NCBI RefSeq assembly: GCF_016907535.1
Contig: NZ_JAFBCF010000001.1
Coordinates: forward strand, 2,790,001 to 2,854,000
Source: Microlunatus panaciterrae
GTDB lineage: Bacteria > Actinomycetota > Actinomycetes > Propionibacteriales > Propionibacteriaceae
Reading direction: 5' to 3'
DNA: 64,000 nt
In this document: in pieces, positions 8,965-64,000 of the stretch
How positions within the stretch are numbered: the stretch's first letter is position 1
How the letters are laid out: the number at the start of each line of letters is the position of its first letter
Translations under genes and position numbers: made by a program
The notes under the pieces: generated by a model
Told to the model about the DNA's origin: nothing
The model's database searches: none
What the model saw: only the letters and a program-made list of their open reading frames with translations

Positions 8965-11031
8965 GTGACTGCTGCGAACCCCTTCTTCGCTCCCAGCGAG
9001 CTGCCGTACGAACTGCCGCCGTTTGCCCGGATCGAGGTGTCGCACTTCCGGGAGGCGCTGGAGCGGGGGATGGCAGAGCAGCTGGCCGAGGTCGAGGCGA
9101 TCGCACTGTCGGCCGAGGAGCCGACGATGGCCAACACGATCGACGCCCTGGAGCGCTCAGGTCGCATCCTCACCCGGGTGATGCGGGTGTTCGACAACCA
9201 GACCTCGGCCGACACCAACGAGGAGCTGCAGCAGATCGAGGCGGACTTCGCTCCCCGCTTCGCCGCCCACGACGACGCGATCCTGCTGAACGAGCGGCTG
9301 TTCGCCAGGATCGACGCGCTGTACGCCAGGCGGGACGAGCTGGACCTGACCGCCGAGGCACGCCACGTCCTGCGGCGCTACCACCTGGACTTCGTCCGCG
9401 CCGGGGCGGCGCTGGCCCCTGAGCAGCGGCAACGGCTGCGGGAGATCAACACCCAGCTGGCATCGTTGTCCACCCTGTTCGGCAGCAACCTGCTGGCCGA
9501 CACCAACGCGTCGGCGCTGCAGCTGAGCTCCCGAGCGGACCTGGACGGGCTCTCCGAGGATGCCATCGCGGCAGCGGCGGCGGCCGCGCAGTCCCGCGGC
9601 CTGGACGGTTACCTGATCACGCTGGTGCTGCCGACGCACCAACCCGCGCTGGAGTCGCTCACCAACCGACAGGTTCGGCGTCGGCTGTACGAAGCCTCGG
9701 TTGCTCGCGGTAGCCGAGGCAACGCCCACGACAACACCGACATCGCCCGGCAGCTGGTGGTGCTGCGGGCCGAGCGGGCCGAGCTGCTCGGCTATCGCAG
9801 CCACAGCGACTATGTGCTTGCCGACCGGACGGCCGGGTCGAACGAGCAGCTGGACGCGATGCTCGACCAGCTGATCGCCCCGGCGGTGGCCAACGCGCAC
9901 GCGGAGCAGGCCGACCTGGCGGCGGCCATGGCGGCCGACGGTGTCGAGGACGAGTTCGCCGCCTGGGACTGGGCCTTCTATGCGGAGGCGGTGAGGCGGG
10001 AGCGGTACGAGCTGGACACCAACGCCCTGCGGCCCTACTTCGAGGTGGACCGCACCCTGGTGGACGGGGTCTTCTTCGCCGCCACCAGCCTCTACGGCAT
10101 CACCTTCACCGCTCGCGACGATCTGCAGGCCTATCATCCCGAGGCGCGGGTGTTCGAGGTACGCAACGCCGACGGCTCCGAGCTCGGGCTCTTCATCGCC
10201 GACTACTTCACCCGCGACTCGAAGCGCGGCGGCGCCTGGATGAACTCGCTGGTGACCCAGTCGAGACTGCTCGACCAGAAACCGGTCGTGCTGAACAACA
10301 TGAACATCCCGAAGCCGCCTCCGGGCCAGCCGGCGCTAATGAGCCTGGACGAGGTCCGGACCATGTTCCACGAGTTCGGTCATGCGTTGCACGGACTCTT
10401 CTCCTCGGTCACCTACCCACGGGTGGCCGGTACGGCGGTGGCCCGCGACTTCGTCGAGTACCCCTCGCAGGTCAACGAGATGTGGCTGAGCTGGCCCGAG
10501 GTGATCGCCAACTACACCAGGCATCACGAGTCGGCGGAGCCGCTGCCGGCGGACGTGATCACCAGGATCGAGGAGTCGTCGGCGTTCAACCAGGGCTTCG
10601 AGACCGTGTCGTACCTGGCCGCGACCTGGCTGGACCTGTGCTGGCACCGACTCGGCGCAGCTGAGGCTCGGGCGTTGGAGGGCTCGATCGAGGACTTCGA
10701 GCGCCGGGCCCTCGAGCAGGTCGGGCTGGCGCTCGAGACCGTTCCGCCTCGCTATCGCAGTGCCTACTTCAACCACATCTTCGCCAGCGGCTACGCGTCC
10801 GGCTATTACTCCTACATCTGGAGCGAGGTGCTGGACGCCGACACGGTGGAGTGGTTCAAGGAGTCTGGCGGCCTGCAGCGCCGCAACGGCGACCTCTTCC
10901 GCGACGCCCTGCTCGCCCGCGGGGCCAGCGGCCCCGAGATGTCCTTCTTCGAGTCCTTCCGGGGGCGGCCCGCCTCGATCACTCCGCTGCTGGAGCGTCG
11001 CGGTCTGGCCAGCGCCCCGAGTTCGCCCTAG
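8965..11031 (+). CDS. dcp: M3 family metallopeptidase (peptidyl-dipeptidase Dcp type)
   Basis: A zinc metallopeptidase of 688 aa, the usual length of oligopeptidase A / Dcp enzymes, that would cleave short peptides in the cytoplasm. The zinc site is MFHEFGHALHG, with HEFGH at 469-473. The conserved DFVEYPSQVNEMW supplies the downstream glutamate ligand. The C-terminus IFASGYASGYYSYIWSEVLDAD is the M3 substrate-binding signature. There is no signal peptide. The GTG at 8965 follows a TAGGCT -10 box by 8 nt. Dcp rather than oligopeptidase A is inferred from overall resemblance. Confidence 0.92.
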   Translation: MTAANPFFAPSELPYELPPFARIEVSHFREALERGMAEQLAEVEAIALSAEEPTMANTIDALERSGRILTRVMRVFDNQTSADTNEELQQIEADFAPRFAAHDDAILLNERLFARIDALYARRDELDLTAEARHVLRRYHLDFVRAGAALAPEQRQRLREINTQLASLSTLFGSNLLADTNASALQLSSRADLDGLSEDAIAAAAAAAQSRGLDGYLITLVLPTHQPALESLTNRQVRRRLYEASVARGSRGNAHDNTDIARQLVVLRAERAELLGYRSHSDYVLADRTAGSNEQLDAMLDQLIAPAVANAHAEQADLAAAMAADGVEDEFAAWDWAFYAEAVRRERYELDTNALRPYFEVDRTLVDGVFFAATSLYGITFTARDDLQAYHPEARVFEVRNADGSELGLFIADYFTRDSKRGGAWMNSLVTQSRLLDQKPVVLNNMNIPKPPPGQPALMSLDEVRTMFHEFGHALHGLFSSVTYPRVAGTAVARDFVEYPSQVNEMWLSWPEVIANYTRHHESAEPLPADVITRIEESSAFNQGFETVSYLAATWLDLCWHRLGAAEARALEGSIEDFERRALEQVGLALETVPPRYRSAYFNHIFASGYASGYYSYIWSEVLDADTVEWFKESGGLQRRNGDLFRDALLARGASGPEMSFFESFRGRPASITPLLERRGLASAPSSP

Positions 11032-11157
11032 GCTGCTGTCCGGGCGACGTCGCGTCCGCGTCTGAAGATCCGCCAGCATAATGCTTGGCTATGGATCGTC
11101 GGCCTGAGAGAGTGAGACCAGTCGATAACAGGGGCGGCATGGTGAGGGGGCACGGGG

Positions 11158-11778
11158 ATGACGCAGGACGGTCTGTCGGTGGTGCCGAGCGGCGAGCTCG
11201 TCGCCGAGGCGAAGGCCGGTGACCGCACCGCGATCGACCTCCTGATCGGGTTGGTCCGCCCGCTGATCTACCGTTACTGCCGGTCTCGGCTGGCCAGCTA
11301 TGCCGGTGGCCTGGACATCGCCGACGACGTCGCGCAGGAGACCTGCATGGCTGTCTACCGGGTACTGCCATGGTACGAGGACAGGGGAGTGCCGTTCGCC
11401 TCCTGGCTGTATGCCATCGCCTCCCACAAGGTGGCCGATGCGCAGCGGTCCTACCTCCGGTCGCCGACCCTCCTCGATGAGCTCCCGGAGGTGGCCGAGC
11501 CCTCACCGACACCGGAGGAGCGGCTGATCGCAGCCGCCAACGCCGGCATCGTCCTCGACCTGGTGGACCAGCTGCCGGAGAAGATGCGCAACGTCGTGAT
11601 GCTGCGCACCGGCGGGGCAACGGCCGAGGAGACCGCAGTGATGCTCGGCATGAGTGCCGGAGCGGTACGGGTGACCCACCACCGCGCGCTGACCAAGTTG
11701 CGGGCGCTGGCGCATCAGGCCGGCGCGGTGCCGGACCCGTCGGTGGATGGCAGCGACCTGCTCGAGACCGCCAGCTGA
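11158..11778 (+). CDS. shbA: RNA polymerase sigma-70 family factor, ShbA/SigD type
   Basis: An alternative sigma factor of 206 aa with region 2 (DIADDVAQETCMAVYRVLPWY, then FASWLYAIASHKVADAQRS) and region 4 (LPEKMRNVVMLRTGGATAEETAVMLGMSAGAVRVTHHRALTKLR). Mycobacterial SigD and Streptomyces ShbA are encoded close to guaB in the same way, and ShbA drives transcription of the principal sigma factor gene. That role here is an inference from family and position. The ATG at 11158 follows GAGGGGG. No anti-sigma gene lies next to it. Confidence 0.85.
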   Translation: MTQDGLSVVPSGELVAEAKAGDRTAIDLLIGLVRPLIYRYCRSRLASYAGGLDIADDVAQETCMAVYRVLPWYEDRGVPFASWLYAIASHKVADAQRSYLRSPTLLDELPEVAEPSPTPEERLIAAANAGIVLDLVDQLPEKMRNVVMLRTGGATAEETAVMLGMSAGAVRVTHHRALTKLRALAHQAGAVPDPSVDGSDLLETAS

Positions 11779-13395
<1,617 letters not shown>

Positions 13396-58771: not shown

Positions 58772-61357
58772 TCAAGCCTGGCCGGTTCCCAGCCGCCAGG
58801 ACGCCCCGAAGCAGACGAAGGGTACGAACGGCTGGTCAACCTCGACCACAGCGGCAGCCAGCGCCGAGGCGGCATCGGAGCCGGCGGCGAGCCGGCGGTG
58901 GTAGGACGCCATCACCTGACCGGCGATCTCGTCACCCACCTGGGCCACCCCGGCCACCACGCAGCGCGCACCGCGCTGCAGCAGCACGCTGGTCAGTCCC
59001 AACGTCTCGTCACCGGGCCGCAGCGTGTTCTGTCCGAGCTCACAGGCGGACAGGATGACGTGCGCAGCGATCGGGTCCTGCTCGATCTCGTAGGCGAACA
59101 ACGGGCCGTCGGCCAGCTGCAGCGACGAGAACAGCGGGTTCTGGCGTTGGTGTGAGCCGTGCGCGGCGACGTGCACCACGGTCGCTGACGCGAGCGCGCT
59201 GCTGAGCTGGTCGCGGGTGGCCTCGGCACCCACATAGGCGGTGGCCCGAGTGTCGGGCCGCAGCGTGCGCCAGGCCGCGGCCACCGCCGTCGCCTCGCCC
59301 TGGGCGGTGCCGAGCCCGGGGCCGGCGAGCACGTCCACCGTCACCGACGCCACCGGGTGGGTCAGCGACAGCGCGTTCGCCAGCCACCGGGTGGCGGTCG
59401 GCGAGACGACGATCGACCGCCCGCGCAGCGACGGCAGGCAGTTCCAGCTGAAGGCGGCCAGGGCGCCGGTCGGGACCAGCACCACTGGTCGGTCGCCGAG
59501 GCTGAGCGGGGCGATCAACGTGTCGTCCAACCGCTGCATCGTGTGCTGCAGGGAACCGGTCACCGTATTGCGCATCTCCGTGGGCAACGAGCTGTAGGCC
59601 AGCACATTCAGGTCTGCCTGGGCCCGTCGGACCAGTTCGGGCGTCTGGTCGGCCCGGGGCAGCTCGACCAGCCGCGGCGGGCCGTCGCCGAGCACGATCG
59701 CCGACCAGGTGTTGCGGAACACGCAGAAGGTGACCAGCACCTGGTTCCGGCGCTCGATCTCGGTCCGGACGTCAGCCATCGTTGCCGGCGGTGTCGGCCG
59801 GCCGGCGCCGAGCGCCCGCCAGGAGATGGAGCTCAGCTCGGTGTACAGCGCCGAGGTGCGCTGGCGCATCTGGCCCACCACCTCGATCGCCGTCGGATCG
59901 TCGCTGATGCTGCGGATGATCTCGGTCAGGTGCCGCAGTTCGGCCAGCAGCTCGGCGGACTCGCCGACCGGTGGGGTGACGGCGGTCAGCCGGCGCGAGA
60001 TGGCACGGCCCCGTTCGACCGCACTGAACAGGGCATCCGGCCGGTGGCTGCTGAACGCCGTGTCCAGGTCGAGCTCGACCAGCCGCCGGCCGTGGATGGC
60101 ACTGGAGGTCTGCAGGTCGATGCTCCCGAACTGCGCCTGGTGTCGGGTGAGCTCGCGCAGACCCTGGCGGATCTCGGCTCGGGCCGAGCCGCGGTCGGCG
60201 GAGGCCAGGGCGAGCTCGGCGCCGACCGCCCGCTGCTGCAGCTTGATGGTGATCGGATCGGTCGGCTCGATCTTGTGCACCCGGGCGAAGCGCTCCCTGG
60301 CCTCCGGCAGCCGGTCCGCGGCCGCCAGTGCCGCACAGGCGATCAGCCCGGCCGTCCGCGCCTGCAGCTCCAGCCCGTGGTCGGTGAACTCGCGCTCCAG
60401 CCGCAGGGCCGGCGCGACCAGCAGGGACGCCGGCCGGCCGGCCGCCAGGTCGGCCTGCAGCAGGGTCAGCTCGGCGATCCGGCGCCAGCGGTCGTTGCCC
60501 CGGCGTTTGAAGCGCGTCCGGGCCGACCCGGCGAGCTTGCGGGCCGAGGCGAGATCGCGGGCCAGCATCGCGCACTCGGCCCGGGCCAGCTCGGTCTCGG
60601 CCAGCTCCTGGTGCAGCCGGCCGCGGCGGAACTCGTCCTCCGCCAGCAGCAGGGTGCGGTCGGCCGCGTCGATCAGTCCGGCGGCGATGAGCACCCGGGC
60701 CTTGTCCAGGTAGGAGATGCCCCGCGAGCCGTCGATCGGCATCCCGGCGGCCTGGTCCATGGTCTGCAGGGCAGCCGGGATGTTGCCCGCCAGGTACTCC
60801 AGGTAGCCGAGGTTGTGGCGCGCCATGAAGGCCAGGTTCAGCAGGCTGTCGTCGGACTGCTGAGCGCTTACCAGGGCGATGCATCGTTCGAAGTCGGCCC
60901 GAGCCTCGGCCAGATCGAGCTGCTGCAGCCGCAGCGTGCCACGGTTGAGCAGCAGGATGCAGGCATCCTCGACCGGCGCCTCGGCCAGATGCTCCTCGGC
61001 GCTGGCGAAATGCCGCAGCGCCTCGTCCTCGTCACCGTCGCGCATCGCCCGTAGGCCGCGGGCGTTGTCGATCGCGAACGCCAGCGCCTCGGCCCCGATC
61101 CCGGACACGATCTGGTCGGCCTGGTCCAGCAGCTCGCGCCGGTAGGGCCGGCCGCTGAGCTCCGCCTCCACGTTGTAGAGGGTGATCAGCACCCGAACCC
61201 TGACTGCGAGAGCCTCGGCATTGACGCCGAGCTCGGGTCGGTCCAACCTCTCCAGCGCGGCCAACAGCTTGCGGCGTGCCAGGTCCAACCGACCACGGTC
61301 GAAATGCACCATGGCCAGCCGGTGCAACGCGCTGGATTCGGTGACCGGTTCCCCCAT
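58772..61357 (-). CDS. TPR-CHAT (caspase-fold) protease-like protein
   Basis: An 861-aa protein. The N-terminal about 550 residues are a long array of TPR-like helical repeats (for example ALAFAIDNARGLRAMRDGDEDEALRHFASAEEHL, LARAECAMLARDLASARKLAGSA). The C-terminal about 300 residues are a CHAT domain, the caspase/separase-like fold. The catalytic His733 lies in VVHVAAHGSH and Cys772 in VILSACELG. Such proteins act as cytoplasmic proteases that are activated through the helical scaffold. AAGGAC precedes the ATG at 61357. It is the last gene of a four-gene operon with subtilase, sigma factor and a 169-aa protein. Confidence 0.92.
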   Translation of the reverse strand: MGEPVTESSALHRLAMVHFDRGRLDLARRKLLAALERLDRPELGVNAEALAVRVRVLITLYNVEAELSGRPYRRELLDQADQIVSGIGAEALAFAIDNARGLRAMRDGDEDEALRHFASAEEHLAEAPVEDACILLLNRGTLRLQQLDLAEARADFERCIALVSAQQSDDSLLNLAFMARHNLGYLEYLAGNIPAALQTMDQAAGMPIDGSRGISYLDKARVLIAAGLIDAADRTLLLAEDEFRRGRLHQELAETELARAECAMLARDLASARKLAGSARTRFKRRGNDRWRRIAELTLLQADLAAGRPASLLVAPALRLEREFTDHGLELQARTAGLIACAALAAADRLPEARERFARVHKIEPTDPITIKLQQRAVGAELALASADRGSARAEIRQGLRELTRHQAQFGSIDLQTSSAIHGRRLVELDLDTAFSSHRPDALFSAVERGRAISRRLTAVTPPVGESAELLAELRHLTEIIRSISDDPTAIEVVGQMRQRTSALYTELSSISWRALGAGRPTPPATMADVRTEIERRNQVLVTFCVFRNTWSAIVLGDGPPRLVELPRADQTPELVRRAQADLNVLAYSSLPTEMRNTVTGSLQHTMQRLDDTLIAPLSLGDRPVVLVPTGALAAFSWNCLPSLRGRSIVVSPTATRWLANALSLTHPVASVTVDVLAGPGLGTAQGEATAVAAAWRTLRPDTRATAYVGAEATRDQLSSALASATVVHVAAHGSHQRQNPLFSSLQLADGPLFAYEIEQDPIAAHVILSACELGQNTLRPGDETLGLTSVLLQRGARCVVAGVAQVGDEIAGQVMASYHRRLAAGSDAASALAAAVVEVDQPFVPFVCFGASWRLGTGQA

Positions 61358-61364
61358 AGTGTCC

Positions 61365-61874
61365 TTAGAGCTCGATCGTCGGACTGATCACCATTGAGCT
61401 TTCCTCGCCCTTCGGCACCCTCAGGGCGAACTTGGCCAGCCCGGCGGGCAGTCCCTCGAGCGCGAACCGACCGTCCTCGTCGGCCACCGTCTCCACCGTG
61501 TCGTGCGCGAGCAGCACCTGGACGGTCAGCCCGGCCCCCGGCGAGGCCCAGCCGTCCACCCGGACGGTCCCGTCCGGCTGCGGGGTGATGGTCACCATGG
61601 TGGTGAGGCTCTCGCTGGTGAACGTCACGGTGCGTACCGCCTCGGTGGCCGAGCCGCGGACGGCCGTACCGACCGACTCCATCTGGATCAGGTTGGCCAC
61701 CTCGGTGTGCAGCGCATCCAGGGTCAGCTCGAACTGGATCTTCTCCACCAGGGACTCGGGCACCGGGTCGGTCTCGTCATAGAACGCGCGAAGGGCGTTC
61801 AGCACGGCCTGGTCGTCGGCGTCCAGCGGCTGGAGCGAGAGCTCGATCTCCCGATCCTCTTGTGATGCGTTCAT
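61365..61874 (-). CDS. Sigma-linked 169-aa protein, acidic helical N-terminus and beta-sandwich-like C-terminus
   Basis: No named family is recognised. Residues 1-75 are acidic and helical (DDQAVLNALRAFYDETDPVPESLVEKIQFELTLDALHTEVANLIQM); the DPVPESL pattern recurs in proteins next to actinobacterial sigma factors, as far as I recall. Residues 80-169 form beta strands (VTITPQPDGTVRVDGWASPGAGLTVQVLLAHDTVETVADEDGRFALEGLPAGLAKFALRV), like a carboxypeptidase-regulatory or Ig-type fold. The ATG at 61874 overlaps the sigma-factor stop by ATGA, and GGGAGG lies upstream. It could regulate the sigma factor or link the two proteases. Confidence 0.82.
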   Translation of the reverse strand: MNASQEDREIELSLQPLDADDQAVLNALRAFYDETDPVPESLVEKIQFELTLDALHTEVANLIQMESVGTAVRGSATEAVRTVTFTSESLTTMVTITPQPDGTVRVDGWASPGAGLTVQVLLAHDTVETVADEDGRFALEGLPAGLAKFALRVPKGEESSMVISPTIEL

Positions 61875-62479
61875 CGTGCCTCCCATGCAGGGTCGTTGCT
61901 GAGGGCCAGGCGGAGCTTCGCCAGGCACCGTCCCCGAGTCGGCCCGATGCTGCCCTGCGGCATCCCGAGCGCCTTGGCCAGCTCCGCATAGTCGGGCCGG
62001 TCGGCGAACGCGATCACCCGCAGCAGCGCTCGGCAGCGTTCCGGCAGCGCCTCGATATGTCGCCACAGCTTGGCGTCGGTGTCACCACGCAGCACCTCGT
62101 CCTCGACCGCTTCGCCACTGTCCGAGTCGGGCGCACCCGGTCCGTCGAAGTCCTCCGGTCGGGTCCGGGCCTGGATCCGCGACACTCGCCACGCCTCCCT
62201 CTTCGTCGTCACCAACATCCACTGCAGCAACGCCAGCGGCTCGGTGATCGAGTCCGCCTTGCGGACCAGCACCAGCCAGACGCTCTGCACCACATCCTCG
62301 GCGGTCTGGCTGTCGAGCCGCATCGACCGGGCGGTGTGCCACAGGATCGGCGTCAGCATCCTCACCAGCTCGGCCATCCGGGTCTCGTCGCCGTCGCGAT
62401 AGGCCGCGAACGCCCGGCCGGCCCGACCGGCGAGACTGTCCTCGCCGGCCCTGCTCTCTTCGATGATCCCACCAGTCAT
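61871..62479 (-). CDS. ECF-like RNA polymerase sigma factor
   Basis: A 202-aa sigma factor with region 2 (MAELVRMLTPILWHTARSMRLDSQTAEDVVQSVWLVLVRKADSITEPLALLQWMLVTTKREAWR) and region 4 (ALPERCRALLRVIAFADRPDYAELAKALGMPQGSIGPTRGRCLAKLR). The GSIGPTRGRCLAKL ending is typical of a sigma group encoded near CHAT and subtilase genes. AGGAGG lies 6 nt before the ATG at 62479. It overlaps the protease stop (ATGA) and the 169-aa gene (ATGA). No transmembrane or zinc anti-sigma protein is encoded alongside. Confidence 0.92.
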   Translation of the reverse strand: MTGGIIEESRAGEDSLAGRAGRAFAAYRDGDETRMAELVRMLTPILWHTARSMRLDSQTAEDVVQSVWLVLVRKADSITEPLALLQWMLVTTKREAWRVSRIQARTRPEDFDGPGAPDSDSGEAVEDEVLRGDTDAKLWRHIEALPERCRALLRVIAFADRPDYAELAKALGMPQGSIGPTRGRCLAKLRLALSNDPAWEAR

Positions 62480-64000
62480 GACGGCCTCCTGAGCCGGGGA
62501 ACGAGCGCGGTGAGGGCCTGCCATCCGGCGTCCAGGGCCTGGTCGGCGGCGGTGGCGGGGGCGATCGACTCACGCAGTTGGTGCGAGGTGTTGAGCCATT
62601 CGGCGATGTCGCCGGCCAGGATCGGTGCGGCGAACGACGTACCGCTCCAGGAACCGAAGCCGGAGGAGAAGTCGTCCGGGTCGACGGTGGCTCGCACCTC
62701 GCCGCGGTAGACGGTCTCGGAGACGGGTTGGCCGGCGGCGTCGAAGGTGGTCGGCAGGGTGCTGATCAGCGAGGCGCCGGGCCGCCAGACCCGCACCCAG
62801 GGGCCGTCGTTGGAGAACAGGGCGATGCTGCCGTCGGGGTTGAGGGCGCCGACACTGACGATCGGCAGCACGTTGCGTTCGTTCCGCTTGATCAGCCCGC
62901 TGGGATGTGGGGCGAAGGCGGCGGGGAACATCGGACGTACGGTCGCGTCGTTGCCGGCGGAGGTGACCACCGCGACACCGAGCTCGCCGAGTGCCCGCAA
63001 CGGGGTCAACAGCAACGGGTCGAACGCAGCATCGGACGGCTGCTCATGGTAGTAGCCGAGGGACAGTGAGACGACGTCGATCAGCTTGGCCGGGTCGCCC
63101 TGGATGATGGCCAGCTTCTGCCGCAGCCAGAGCATGTTCAACGCCTCCAGCAGGTCACCCTCGGTGACCACGCCGTCGCCCTGGATCACCCGGATCGCGA
63201 GCAGGTTGGCGTCCGGGCACTTCTGCCGGACCAGCCCGGCGATGAAGGTGCCGTGTCCGGCGTCGGCGTCCAGGTTGCCGGTGAGCTCGTTGGTGACCAC
63301 GCCGGTCAGCTCGGGGTTGGTGGCCGGGTCGGTGAGCCCGATCCGCAGCGCACCGCAGGTCGGCCTGCGGTCGACGATGCCGTCCGGCAGCCAGTCATGT
63401 TCGCCCACGCCGGTGTCCAGGATCGCAACCACCGGACGCCGCCGGCCGTCCAGCCAGGCGTCCGGGCAGCGCAGTGGCGCCGGCCCGATCCAGGTCACCG
63501 GCGTGCGCGCTCCCCAGCCCGGCTCGCCGTAGCTGCCGGTGCCGGGGATCTTCCAGTACGGGTTGGCCTCGGTGCCGGGGATCTTCCAGTACGGGTTGCC
63601 GGTCACGTTGGGTCCGTCGGCCGAGGTCATCAGGTGGTCGAGCTGGACCGAGTTCCTGGTCCGGTCGCGGGCGCCGAACATCGCCCGGAAGGTCTGCAGC
63701 ACCGGCCAGGCGTCCGGCGGCGCCTGCGGGGCGCCGGTCCAGCGTGGCATCAGGTGCACCCGGGCGAGCAGCGGCTGCGCCTCCTCCGGGGTGATGCCGG
63801 CATCGCGTGCCATCCGGCGCAGCCGCCGGTCGATCGGGTCGATGGTGATGTCGAGGTCGTGCGCGTCTGCGGCCCTGCGCAGCTTGTCCACGACCTCCTG
63901 CTCGTTGCTGGTCGGGCGGATCAGCAGCCGGTCACCGGCGTAGATGGTCGGGTCGAGGCGCTGACCACGGAGTCTGACCGCCTGAGTCGGGTCGAGGGCC
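62476..64000 (-). CDS. S8 (subtilisin-like) serine protease, 5' end beyond window
   Basis: The frame stays open through 64000, and the stretch beyond 63891 codes for clear protein (TIYAGDRLLIRP), so the N-terminus lies outside the window. The subtilase triad is present: Asp at 63415-63417 (VVAILDTGVGEHDW), His at 63253-63255 (DADAGHGTFIAG), oxyanion Asn at 62950-62952 (VVTSAGND) and Ser at 62635-62637 (SGTSFAAPILAG). No signal peptide or transmembrane helix is visible in the part seen. A duplicated NPYWKIPGT lies before the catalytic domain (63538-63597). The stop overlaps the sigma-factor ATG. Confidence 0.9.
   Translation of the reverse strand, partial: ALDPTQAVRLRGQRLDPTIYAGDRLLIRPTSNEQEVVDKLRRAADAHDLDITIDPIDRRLRRMARDAGITPEEAQPLLARVHLMPRWTGAPQAPPDAWPVLQTFRAMFGARDRTRNSVQLDHLMTSADGPNVTGNPYWKIPGTEANPYWKIPGTGSYGEPGWGARTPVTWIGPAPLRCPDAWLDGRRRPVVAILDTGVGEHDWLPDGIVDRRPTCGALRIGLTDPATNPELTGVVTNELTGNLDADAGHGTFIAGLVRQKCPDANLLAIRVIQGDGVVTEGDLLEALNMLWLRQKLAIIQGDPAKLIDVVSLSLGYYHEQPSDAAFDPLLLTPLRALGELGVAVVTSAGNDATVRPMFPAAFAPHPSGLIKRNERNVLPIVSVGALNPDGSIALFSNDGPWVRVWRPGASLISTLPTTFDAAGQPVSETVYRGEVRATVDPDDFSSGFGSWSGTSFAAPILAGDIAEWLNTSHQLRESIAPATAADQALDAGWQALTALVPRLRRPS
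63537..63598. repeat. Two-copy 29-bp direct repeat inside the subtilase gene
   Basis: Identical 29-nt copies at 63537-63565 and 63570-63598 are spaced at a 33-nt period, so the reading frame is kept. They encode the repeated peptide NPYWKIPGT upstream of the protease domain. Confidence 0.9.

What the first reader, a model, noticed from the sequence alone, without database searches (positions are those of the whole stretch)
58772..64000. Coupled operon of subtilase, sigma factor, 169-aa protein and TPR-CHAT protease
Seen: four minus-strand genes joined by two ATGA overlaps and a 7-bp gap, with intact catalytic motifs in an S8 protease and in a caspase-fold CHAT domain, plus a sigma factor between them. 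Known: CHAT proteins with TPR repeats often act in regulated proteolysis and bacterial conflict or cell-death systems. Inference: the subtilase senses or activates something, the CHAT protease executes, and the sigma factor reports the signal in transcription. No anti-sigma with the usual zinc or membrane signature is present, so control must be different.
Basis: partly seen in the sequence, partly recalled or inferred. Interest (0 to 1): 0.8.

Follow-up and report, generated by a model that had tools for sequence, protein, structure and literature searches.

The report
Protease-controlled sigma switch with peptide barcode
Four neighbouring genes in this actinobacterium belong to a recurrent control unit in which two protein-cutting enzymes sit with a gene-switching factor and its likely partner, and one cutter carries a short repeated peptide whose wording differs between species, as if it were a recognition tag.

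Summary
In detail: S8 subtilase, ECF sigma, 169-aa protein (P169) and TPR-CHAT protease are coupled by two ATGA overlaps and a 7-bp gap. The set recurs in Actinobacteriota: P169 lies beside sigma in 79 of 80 loci found with sigma and 27 of 29 found with P169; catalytic residues are kept in every aligned row. Three features were not in the finding. (1) A promoter, GTATC-N17/18-CTC(C/T), precedes the operon in 68 of 85 upstream regions (shuffled mean 0.3); eight same-genus genomes with sigma-P169 hold 37 motif copies, eight without P169 hold one. (2) The S8 carries a tandem peptide (NPYWKIPG here) between prodomain and catalytic domain, uniform within a gene and different between species; in most relatives the copies differ at silent sites (pS 0.47), though the window's two copies are identical DNA. 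(3) An unrelated S1 protease shares the promoter and, in Knoellia sinensis, the same repeat. Best reading: a CRISPR-free system working like Csx29-Csx30-CASP-sigma, with P169 as soluble anti-sigma, relieved by an intracellular protease, and the repeat as docking code. Autoregulation is well supported by sequence; the rest is inferred.

The parts
62476..64000 (-). S8 subtilase with I9-type prodomain; gene continues to 64119 outside the window (547 aa)
63625..63999 (-). prodomain-like N-terminal part of the S8 protein that lies in the window
63574..63597 (-). first copy of the tandem peptide NPYWKIPG, in a segment predicted disordered (pLDDT under 50)
63541..63564 (-). second copy of NPYWKIPG, identical in DNA to the first
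61871..62479 (-). ECF-type sigma factor (SIG), 202 aa
61365..61874 (-). P169, candidate soluble anti-sigma
61668..61868 (-). P169 three-helix N-terminal domain (residues 3-69); residues 70-77 are a low-confidence linker
   Evidence: covaries most with the repeat unit
61386..61634 (-). P169 C-terminal beta sandwich (residues 81-163), Ig-like
58772..61357 (-). TPR-CHAT protease, 861 aa
58838..59545 (-). CHAT domain with His733 (59159-59161) and Cys772 (59042-59044)

Best explanation
The operon is a cytoplasmic, CRISPR-free protease-to-sigma relay. SIG drives its own operon and a regulon from the promoter GTATC-N17/18-CTC(C/T) (strongly supported by sequence, not by experiment). P169 is a soluble two-domain anti-sigma: its helical domain holds SIG and its Ig-like domain presents it to the protease (inferred). 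When the proteases are engaged, TPR-CHAT, the S8 or both cut P169, most likely in the flexible linker at residues 70-77, and free SIG, which amplifies the loop (inferred). The S8 is made as a zymogen with an I9-type prodomain (fold predicted). The tandem repeat, placed in the S8 prodomain linker and, in some genomes, in the C-terminal tail of an unrelated S1 protease, is a species-specific multivalent docking or cleavage tag read in trans by the helical domain of P169 and/or by CHAT (inferred from covariation). The trigger is unknown.
For: Recurrence: 93 loci (80 found with sigma, 13 own or found with P169; 90 distinct, as L062, L063 and L065 repeat L020, L019 and L025); P169 beside SIG in 92, and in 79 of the 80 found with sigma, the miss being at a contig end; commonest orders S8-SIG-P169-CHAT in 58 and SIG-P169-S8-CHAT in 10. 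P169-led phylum sample: SIG directly upstream in 27 of the 29 loci read, the best-scoring ones outside the window's own genome. Three same-genus genomes keep SIG-P169 without S8 or CHAT nearby. Promoter: 68 of 85 regions; 37 matches in 8 SIG-P169 genomes of the genus (reversed-pattern control 2) against 1 in 8 P169-less ones (control 10); 84 against 16 controls in 12 other genomes. The window's own promoter is at 64192-64218, 72 nt before the S8 ATG. Downstream genes in other genomes include CHAT, C1, DUF6345, phospholipase and PG-binding proteins. S1: beside the operon in 15 loci, with an exact motif facing it in 10; unlinked in the window's genome, with a motif 46 nt before its likely ATG. 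Repeat: score 8 or more in 66 of 75 S8 ORFs; pS 0.47, pN 0.004; 55 of 57 short units hold Y, W or F, 42 distinct units; the same unit GWGDGI in S8 and S1 of one genome. Partial Mantel: P169 helical part 0.36, CHAT first eighth 0.23, last eighth 0.27; S8's own domains -0.02 to 0.02. Parallels: Csx30 inhibits CASP-sigma and is cut by TPR-CHAT Csx29 (PMC10028731, passages); CalpT inhibits CalpS and is cut by CalpL (PMC11417357, passages).
Against: No binding, cleavage or transcription data exist. P169 shows no sequence match to a known anti-sigma, nor to Csx30 in the PDB search; its structural matches are generic Ig-like folds of the beta domain, and the helical domain was not searched alone. The window's two repeat copies are identical DNA, so the silent-site argument rests on relatives; pN is biased low because repeats were chosen by amino-acid identity. 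The Mantel tests only partly remove phylogeny, and CHAT's last eighth belongs to the catalytic domain. L074 has SIG-P169-CHAT with no repeat-bearing protease nearby; L028 and L029 have S8 without a scored repeat. Of 7 loci with both S1 and S8, only L107 shows the S8 unit in the S1, and the window's own S1 lacks NPYWKIPG. The protease-rich downstream genes come mostly from one genome, G451; sites in the window's genus precede other genes. Some sites lie inside genes (7 of 42, 10 of 32). Exact reverse copies of the motif also occur in 15 regions without a detected S1. Four genomes of the genus hold further sigma relatives that might share the promoter, one of them (G002) without P169 and without the motif.
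Confidence: 0.43

Rival explanations
1. SIG is controlled mainly by its own autoregulated transcription; P169 is an adaptor or substrate carrier, and S8, CHAT and S1 are effectors of a stress, conflict or death response. The proteases act downstream of SIG and not on P169.
For: S1, and in other genomes CHAT proteins and hydrolases, follow the SIG promoter; SIG-P169 persists without the proteases nearby.
Against: Proteases are co-transcribed with SIG-P169, which suits feedback on SIG; the Csx29/Csx30 and Calp systems show such wiring.
Confidence: 0.27
2. The tandem repeat is only a flexible linker between prodomain and catalytic domain, homogenised by slippage.
For: Predicted disordered; length and copy number vary; 57 of 57 short units contain Gly or Pro; the window's two copies are identical DNA.
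Against: In most relatives synonymous sites between copies are strongly diverged while residues agree, unlike fresh slippage; 55 of 57 short units hold an aromatic residue; it also occurs in the C-terminal tail of an unrelated S1 protease, with the same motif in one genome; the unit does not track S8's own divergence once other genes are allowed for.
Confidence: 0.2
3. The repeat is a multicopy peptide signal: autoprocessing of S8 releases short identical peptides that bind the TPR domain of CHAT, as peptide pheromones bind RRNPP receptors (recalled family).
For: Position at the prodomain junction, where subtilisins self-process (self-processing recalled); an aromatic residue that could suit a subtilisin P1 site (recalled preference); identical copies, fast change between species; the CHAT profile's TPR matches include Rap proteins among many TPRs.
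Against: No secretion signal was seen by eye on the S8; the S1 version sits in a C-terminal tail; no peptide has been observed.
Confidence: 0.1

Closest known systems
Type III-E CRISPR CASP/Craspase: Csx29 (TPR-CHAT), Csx30, CASP-sigma (PMC10028731, passages read)
   Same: TPR-CHAT protease, ECF sigma and a further small-locus protein together; the CHAT C-terminal part is nearest to Csx29 among NCBIfam models (1.2e-7), and 7zoq (TPR-CHAT) is the only PDB match (0.021).
   Different: No Cas7-11-sized gene among the ORFs of the locus; score 31 against the Csx29 cut-off of 300; P169 has 169 aa against 565 for Csx30; adds S8/S1 proteases with a repeat tag. With the family profile the PDB matches shown are generic TPRs (best 60 of 154 listed).
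CalpL/CalpT/CalpS (PMC11417357, passages read)
   Same: Logic: protease, anti-sigma, ECF sigma.
   Different: The protease is a SAVED-Lon protein triggered by cA4; neither domain was found in the four proteins.
EACC2-caspase-TRADD-N neighbourhoods with ECF sigma and a DUF1822 TPR protein (PMC8195603, passages read)
   Same: Caspase-like domain, trypsin-like peptidases, ECF sigma and a TPR protein in one neighbourhood.
   Different: Different TPR and adaptor families; no S8-SIG-P169-CHAT order or peptide repeat in the passages shown.
Subtilases with I9 prodomain (pro-subtilisin E, PCSK9)
   Same: Fold of prodomain plus catalytic domain; catalytic triad.
   Different: No signal peptide seen by eye; a tandem peptide at the prodomain junction.

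Membership tests
Type III-E CASP (Csx29/Csx30/CASP-sigma) | TPR-CHAT protease with His-Cys pair | tested here: met
Type III-E CASP (Csx29/Csx30/CASP-sigma) | Csx29 orthology by the curated NCBIfam cut-off | tested here: not met
   31 bits against 300
Type III-E CASP (Csx29/Csx30/CASP-sigma) | Cas7-11 effector beside it | tested here: not met
   ORFs of window 52-64 kb and of L002 6-16 kb show none by size or by eye; no search for CRISPR arrays was run
Type III-E CASP (Csx29/Csx30/CASP-sigma) | Csx30 homologue | tested here: inconclusive
   the P169 profile matched no Csx30 chain in the PDB sequences
CalpL/T/S | SAVED-Lon protease | tested here: not met
   Pfam of the four proteins shows neither domain
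ECF sigma factors | sigma2 and sigma4 regions in a short protein | tested here: met
   202 aa; TIGR02937 54.1 against 42.9; Sigma70_r2 over cut-off, region 4 below the Pfam cut-off; PDB ECF matches
ZAS / membrane class I anti-sigma | zinc motif (HxxxCxxC, recalled) or transmembrane segment in P169 | tested here: not met
   no cysteine in the window's P169; 2 of 92 P169 frames exceed a hydropathy of 1.6, at most 1.67, measured on stop-to-stop frames that include non-coding flanks
Anti-sigma factor (functional class) | binds and inhibits its sigma | not testable with these tools
   only gene order and predicted fold are available
S8 subtilase zymogen | Asp/His/Ser triad and I9-type prodomain fold | tested here: met
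   the fold is a prediction
RRNPP peptide signalling | TPR receptor with HTH or Rap-type effector and exported propeptide (recalled) | tested here: not met
   the effector domain is CHAT; no signal peptide seen by eye on the S8

The most novel reading that the evidence does not exclude
A species-specific intracellular peptide barcode: short tandem peptides carried by two unrelated serine proteases (S8, S1) are read in trans by P169 and/or the TPR-CHAT caspase-like protease, so that only a matching protease can engage the switch that frees a sigma factor and its regulon. It would be a bacterial protease cascade with a built-in self-recognition code, without CRISPR or a known second messenger.
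Probability: 0.28. Interest if true: 0.92.

Novelty: new variant of a known kind. Interest (0 to 1): 0.8.

Why it matters
TPR-CHAT proteases tied to a sigma factor are known from CRISPR loci, where the guide supplies the trigger (PMC10028731, passages). Here the same kind of pair recurs with no CRISPR effector gene seen beside it, through Actinobacteriota and in different housekeeping neighbourhoods, with a promoter that makes its regulon readable from sequence. The fast-changing, internally uniform repeat offers a testable ligand-receptor code inside a bacterial protease cascade. None of my paper searches listed a paper whose title or abstract start describes this four-gene operon or its repeat; these cover one open library only, and the ECF reclassification paper was not held, so a published ECF group may already include this sigma.

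Tried and rejected
Defence-island or mobile element: PADLOC gave only weak matches (S8 to 'subtilase' 6.1e-4, CHAT to ZorC 0.003); the plasmid and phage collections gave one record each for P169: an 11.85-Mb Nonomuraea record and a 7.5-kb faecal record named Bacteriophage sp. Flanking gene clusters occur in at most 14 loci against 50-74 for the four genes and look like housekeeping genes by eye. I do not call it a phage-defence system, though it may serve one.

Repeat as a genome-wide tag: not supported. PYWK(I/V)P patterns occur in 4 of 7 genomes and there only in the operon's S8. GYWGG-type patterns form one array in all 10 genomes, inside the contig range of the operon locus, with one extra isolated hit in 2 of the 10 (G435, G438). 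PFTE doublets occur in 7 of 8 genomes; in four they form a single array, in G447 and G449 two arrays at contig ends, and in G448 one short stretch on a contig I did not trace.

Repeat as a zymogen linker only: disfavoured because an S1 protease carries it in its tail, but kept as a rival.

L307, an AMP-binding protein with an apparent GHGLYPA repeat: rejected as a start-codon over-call. Several long open frames printed by my scripts are shadow ORFs in GC-rich DNA, and ORF starts there are not curated.

Regulon calls: 42 sites from eight of the twelve genomes were read. Of the ten P169-positive genomes of the genus counting G000 and the ten P169-negative ones, eight each were used (left out: G008, G009; G013, G015). 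Orthology among downstream genes was judged by eye.

Rows left out before counts: L062, L063 and L065 as duplicates; loci with under 200 bp upstream (85 kept); L069 and L131 and units over 8 aa in the Mantel tests (52 loci kept). In one search, 2 of 66 genes (the window's and L018) had under two full units and added nothing, and for L069 the script scored a stretch other than its visible SPMING repeat. In one search the list of S1 genes with repeats was set by hand, and two rows counted as lacking a repeat (L020, L082) show two copies by eye.
Full report
What is there. Four minus-strand genes at window 58772-64119 encode a TPR-CHAT protease, P169, an ECF sigma and an S8 subtilase; the S8 gene passes the window edge by 119 bp. 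Transcription order is S8, SIG, P169, CHAT. The window lies in a 4.07-Mb single contig with one CHAT match by Pfam. One genome of the same genus group is Microlunatus flavus: its contig in L065 has the length and sigma coordinates of G017:C4.

Recurrence. A scan with the sigma alignment gave 80 loci; with L002 and 12 loci around P169 matches in relatives this makes 93 (90 distinct). P169 was found in 92, and in 79 of the 80 found with sigma; the miss is at a contig end. CHAT matches lie in 81 ORFs and S8 matches in 76. Orders: S8-SIG-P169-CHAT 58, SIG-P169-S8-CHAT 10, SIG-P169 9, SIG-P169-CHAT 7, SIG-P169-S8 3, and six single cases; several short ones end at contig ends. Catalytic residues: CHAT His and Cys in 76 of the 76 aligned rows with a letter (9 of 85 rows gapped); S8 Asp in 73 of 73, His, Asn and Ser in 74 of 74 (6 or 7 of 80 rows gapped). 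A separate search with the P169 profile found it in 49 of 396 genomes and 33 of 246 genera of the phylum; of the 29 best-scoring loci besides the window's, 27 have SIG directly upstream. Clustering of flanking genes gave 50-74 loci for each of the four genes and at most 14 for any other.

Promoter and regulon. Upstream regions of the first operon gene share GTATC-N17/18-CTCCT in 47 of 85 and GTATC-N17/18-CTC(C/T) in 68 of 85; 50 sets of base-shuffled sequences give means of 0.0 and 0.3 and maxima of 1 and 2. Exact reverse copies occur in 25 of the 85 regions; of the 15 loci with a divergent S1 gene, 10 have one. The window's copy lies just outside, at 64192-64218, and scores 14.5 against a shuffled 99th percentile of 7.2 with a matrix built from other loci. 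In the genus, eight genomes with SIG-P169 hold 37 matches (reversed-pattern control 2) and eight without P169 hold one (control 10). One of the latter, G002, has a weaker sigma relative (8e-52), and G005, G016 and G019 have extra ones. In twelve other genomes there are 84 matches against 16 controls, operon sites included. Of 42 sites read there, 30 had an ORF of at least 140 aa starting -90 to +160 nt from the site, 7 lay inside a same-strand ORF and 5 inside an opposite one. Pfam of downstream genes gives PG_binding_1, Zn-dependent phospholipase C, DUF6345, papain-type C1 and two divergent CHAT proteins in genome G451, Sir2 in G453 and a Tle1-like hydrolase in G456; three of ten proteins in the first scan had no match over cut-off and four of nine in the second had none listed, with one more below cut-off. 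In the window's genus, sites precede an endonuclease/phosphatase-family protein and a tyrosinase (own genome), an L,D-transpeptidase with a PG-binding domain (G018) and proteins without a clear family; 10 of 32 genus sites lay inside a same-strand ORF.

The repeat. The S8 model shows an I9-type prodomain joined to the catalytic domain by a disordered segment (pLDDT under 50) that holds the tandem peptide. Of 75 distinct S8 ORFs, 66 have a tandem repeat of score 8 or more before the catalytic His motif. Units include NPYWKIPG, GYGEGV, GWGQGV, HPITGG, PYWDPV, PYYAGV, PFTQSH and NPFDLS. Between copies pS is 0.47 and pN 0.004, pooled over 66 genes of which 64 had two or more full units. Choosing the region by residue identity biases pN low, but a high pS is not expected of fresh slippage. 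The window's own two copies are identical DNA and add nothing here. Among loci with enough flank, 56 of 64 have CHAT and a repeat-bearing protease, five have CHAT without a scored repeat (two of these show copies by eye), and three have neither. The unit is the same in 2 of 2 pairs above 90% catalytic-domain identity, 3 of 4 at 80-90%, 4 of 16 at 70-80%, and 0 of 28 at 60-70%. Distant loci show PFTSGG, GNPSFF and NPAYQG in S8 and PHYQAVTGLE in S1.

Second protease. In Cellulomonas-type loci without S8, a divergent NAL1/trypsin-like protease carries PFTE repeats in its C-terminal tail (six loci; two more S1 genes are cut by contig ends). Its family match is weak: Trypsin_2 1.6e-4, below cut-off. 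Seven loci have both S1 and S8; in one of them, Knoellia sinensis, both carry GWGDGI, four and six times. In the window's genome a 68%-identical homologue is unlinked (contig 3229033-3230232) and has GTATC-N18-CTCT 46 nt before its likely ATG. It shows no NPYWKIPG repeat.

Which protein reads the repeat. Partial Mantel tests over 52 loci, controlling for the other genes, give the highest values for the helical half of P169 (0.36) and the last and first eighths of CHAT (0.27, 0.23); S8's own domains give -0.02 to 0.02. Without the ten SIG-first loci: P169 helical half 0.30, CHAT eighths from -0.06 to 0.29 with the first highest, S8 domains -0.03 to 0.06. This is a lead and not proof: phylogeny is only partly removed.

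Mechanism. Shown by sequence: a conserved operon, a cognate promoter, intact active sites, the repeat and its pattern of change. Inferred: P169 holds SIG, a protease cuts P169, the repeat docks or is cut. The model follows Csx30/CASP-sigma (PMC10028731, passages read) and CalpT/CalpS (PMC11417357, passages read). By the membership tests it belongs to neither.

The S1 count was corrected from 14 to 15, the identity of the window's repeat DNA and the extra sigma relatives were added as evidence against, and the protease-rich regulon was tied to the genome it comes from; confidence in the best explanation went from 0.45 to 0.43, the autoregulation rival from 0.25 to 0.27 and the novel case from 0.30 to 0.28.

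Verdict. The finding is real, recurrent and more interesting than described. I rate it a new variant of the protease, anti-sigma, sigma kind, with a repeat code that may prove to be new in kind.

Noticed in passing
L225:274-768, L233, L246 (regulon loci): Proteins of 165-181 aa with an ALNPQPLPP-type motif follow the SIG promoter in three genomes; no Pfam match for the one scanned.
   Followed up: partly
L227, L242, L243: DUF6345-like proteins (one scanned), with His and Cys stretches that recall caspase-fold peptidases, follow the motif in two genomes, twice in one of them.
   Followed up: partly
L229:819-5608: Two divergent CHAT proteins with SIG motifs facing both ways between them, one with a CBM9-like domain at its C-terminus.
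   Followed up: partly
L107, L084, L097 S1 tails; L319:2210-3970: S1 homologues have a Cys-rich tail with CxxxT(R/K)P-like repeats and a C-terminal YWxGYLAALEE-like motif that resembles some S8 repeat units.
   Followed up: no
MT838002.1:1702-2172: A 7.5-kb faecal record labelled Bacteriophage sp. encodes a P169 relative (41% identity); a bacterial fragment under a phage name is my guess.
   Followed up: no
L314 (G133): A distant locus carries two P169 genes around one CHAT and one S8 with PFTSGG repeats.
   Followed up: no
L112 CHAT frame (9114-11918) and L089 CHAT frame (9098-11746): In-frame acidic or Ser-rich tandem repeats inside or at the end of the CHAT frames of two loci, unlike the S8 units.
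   Followed up: no
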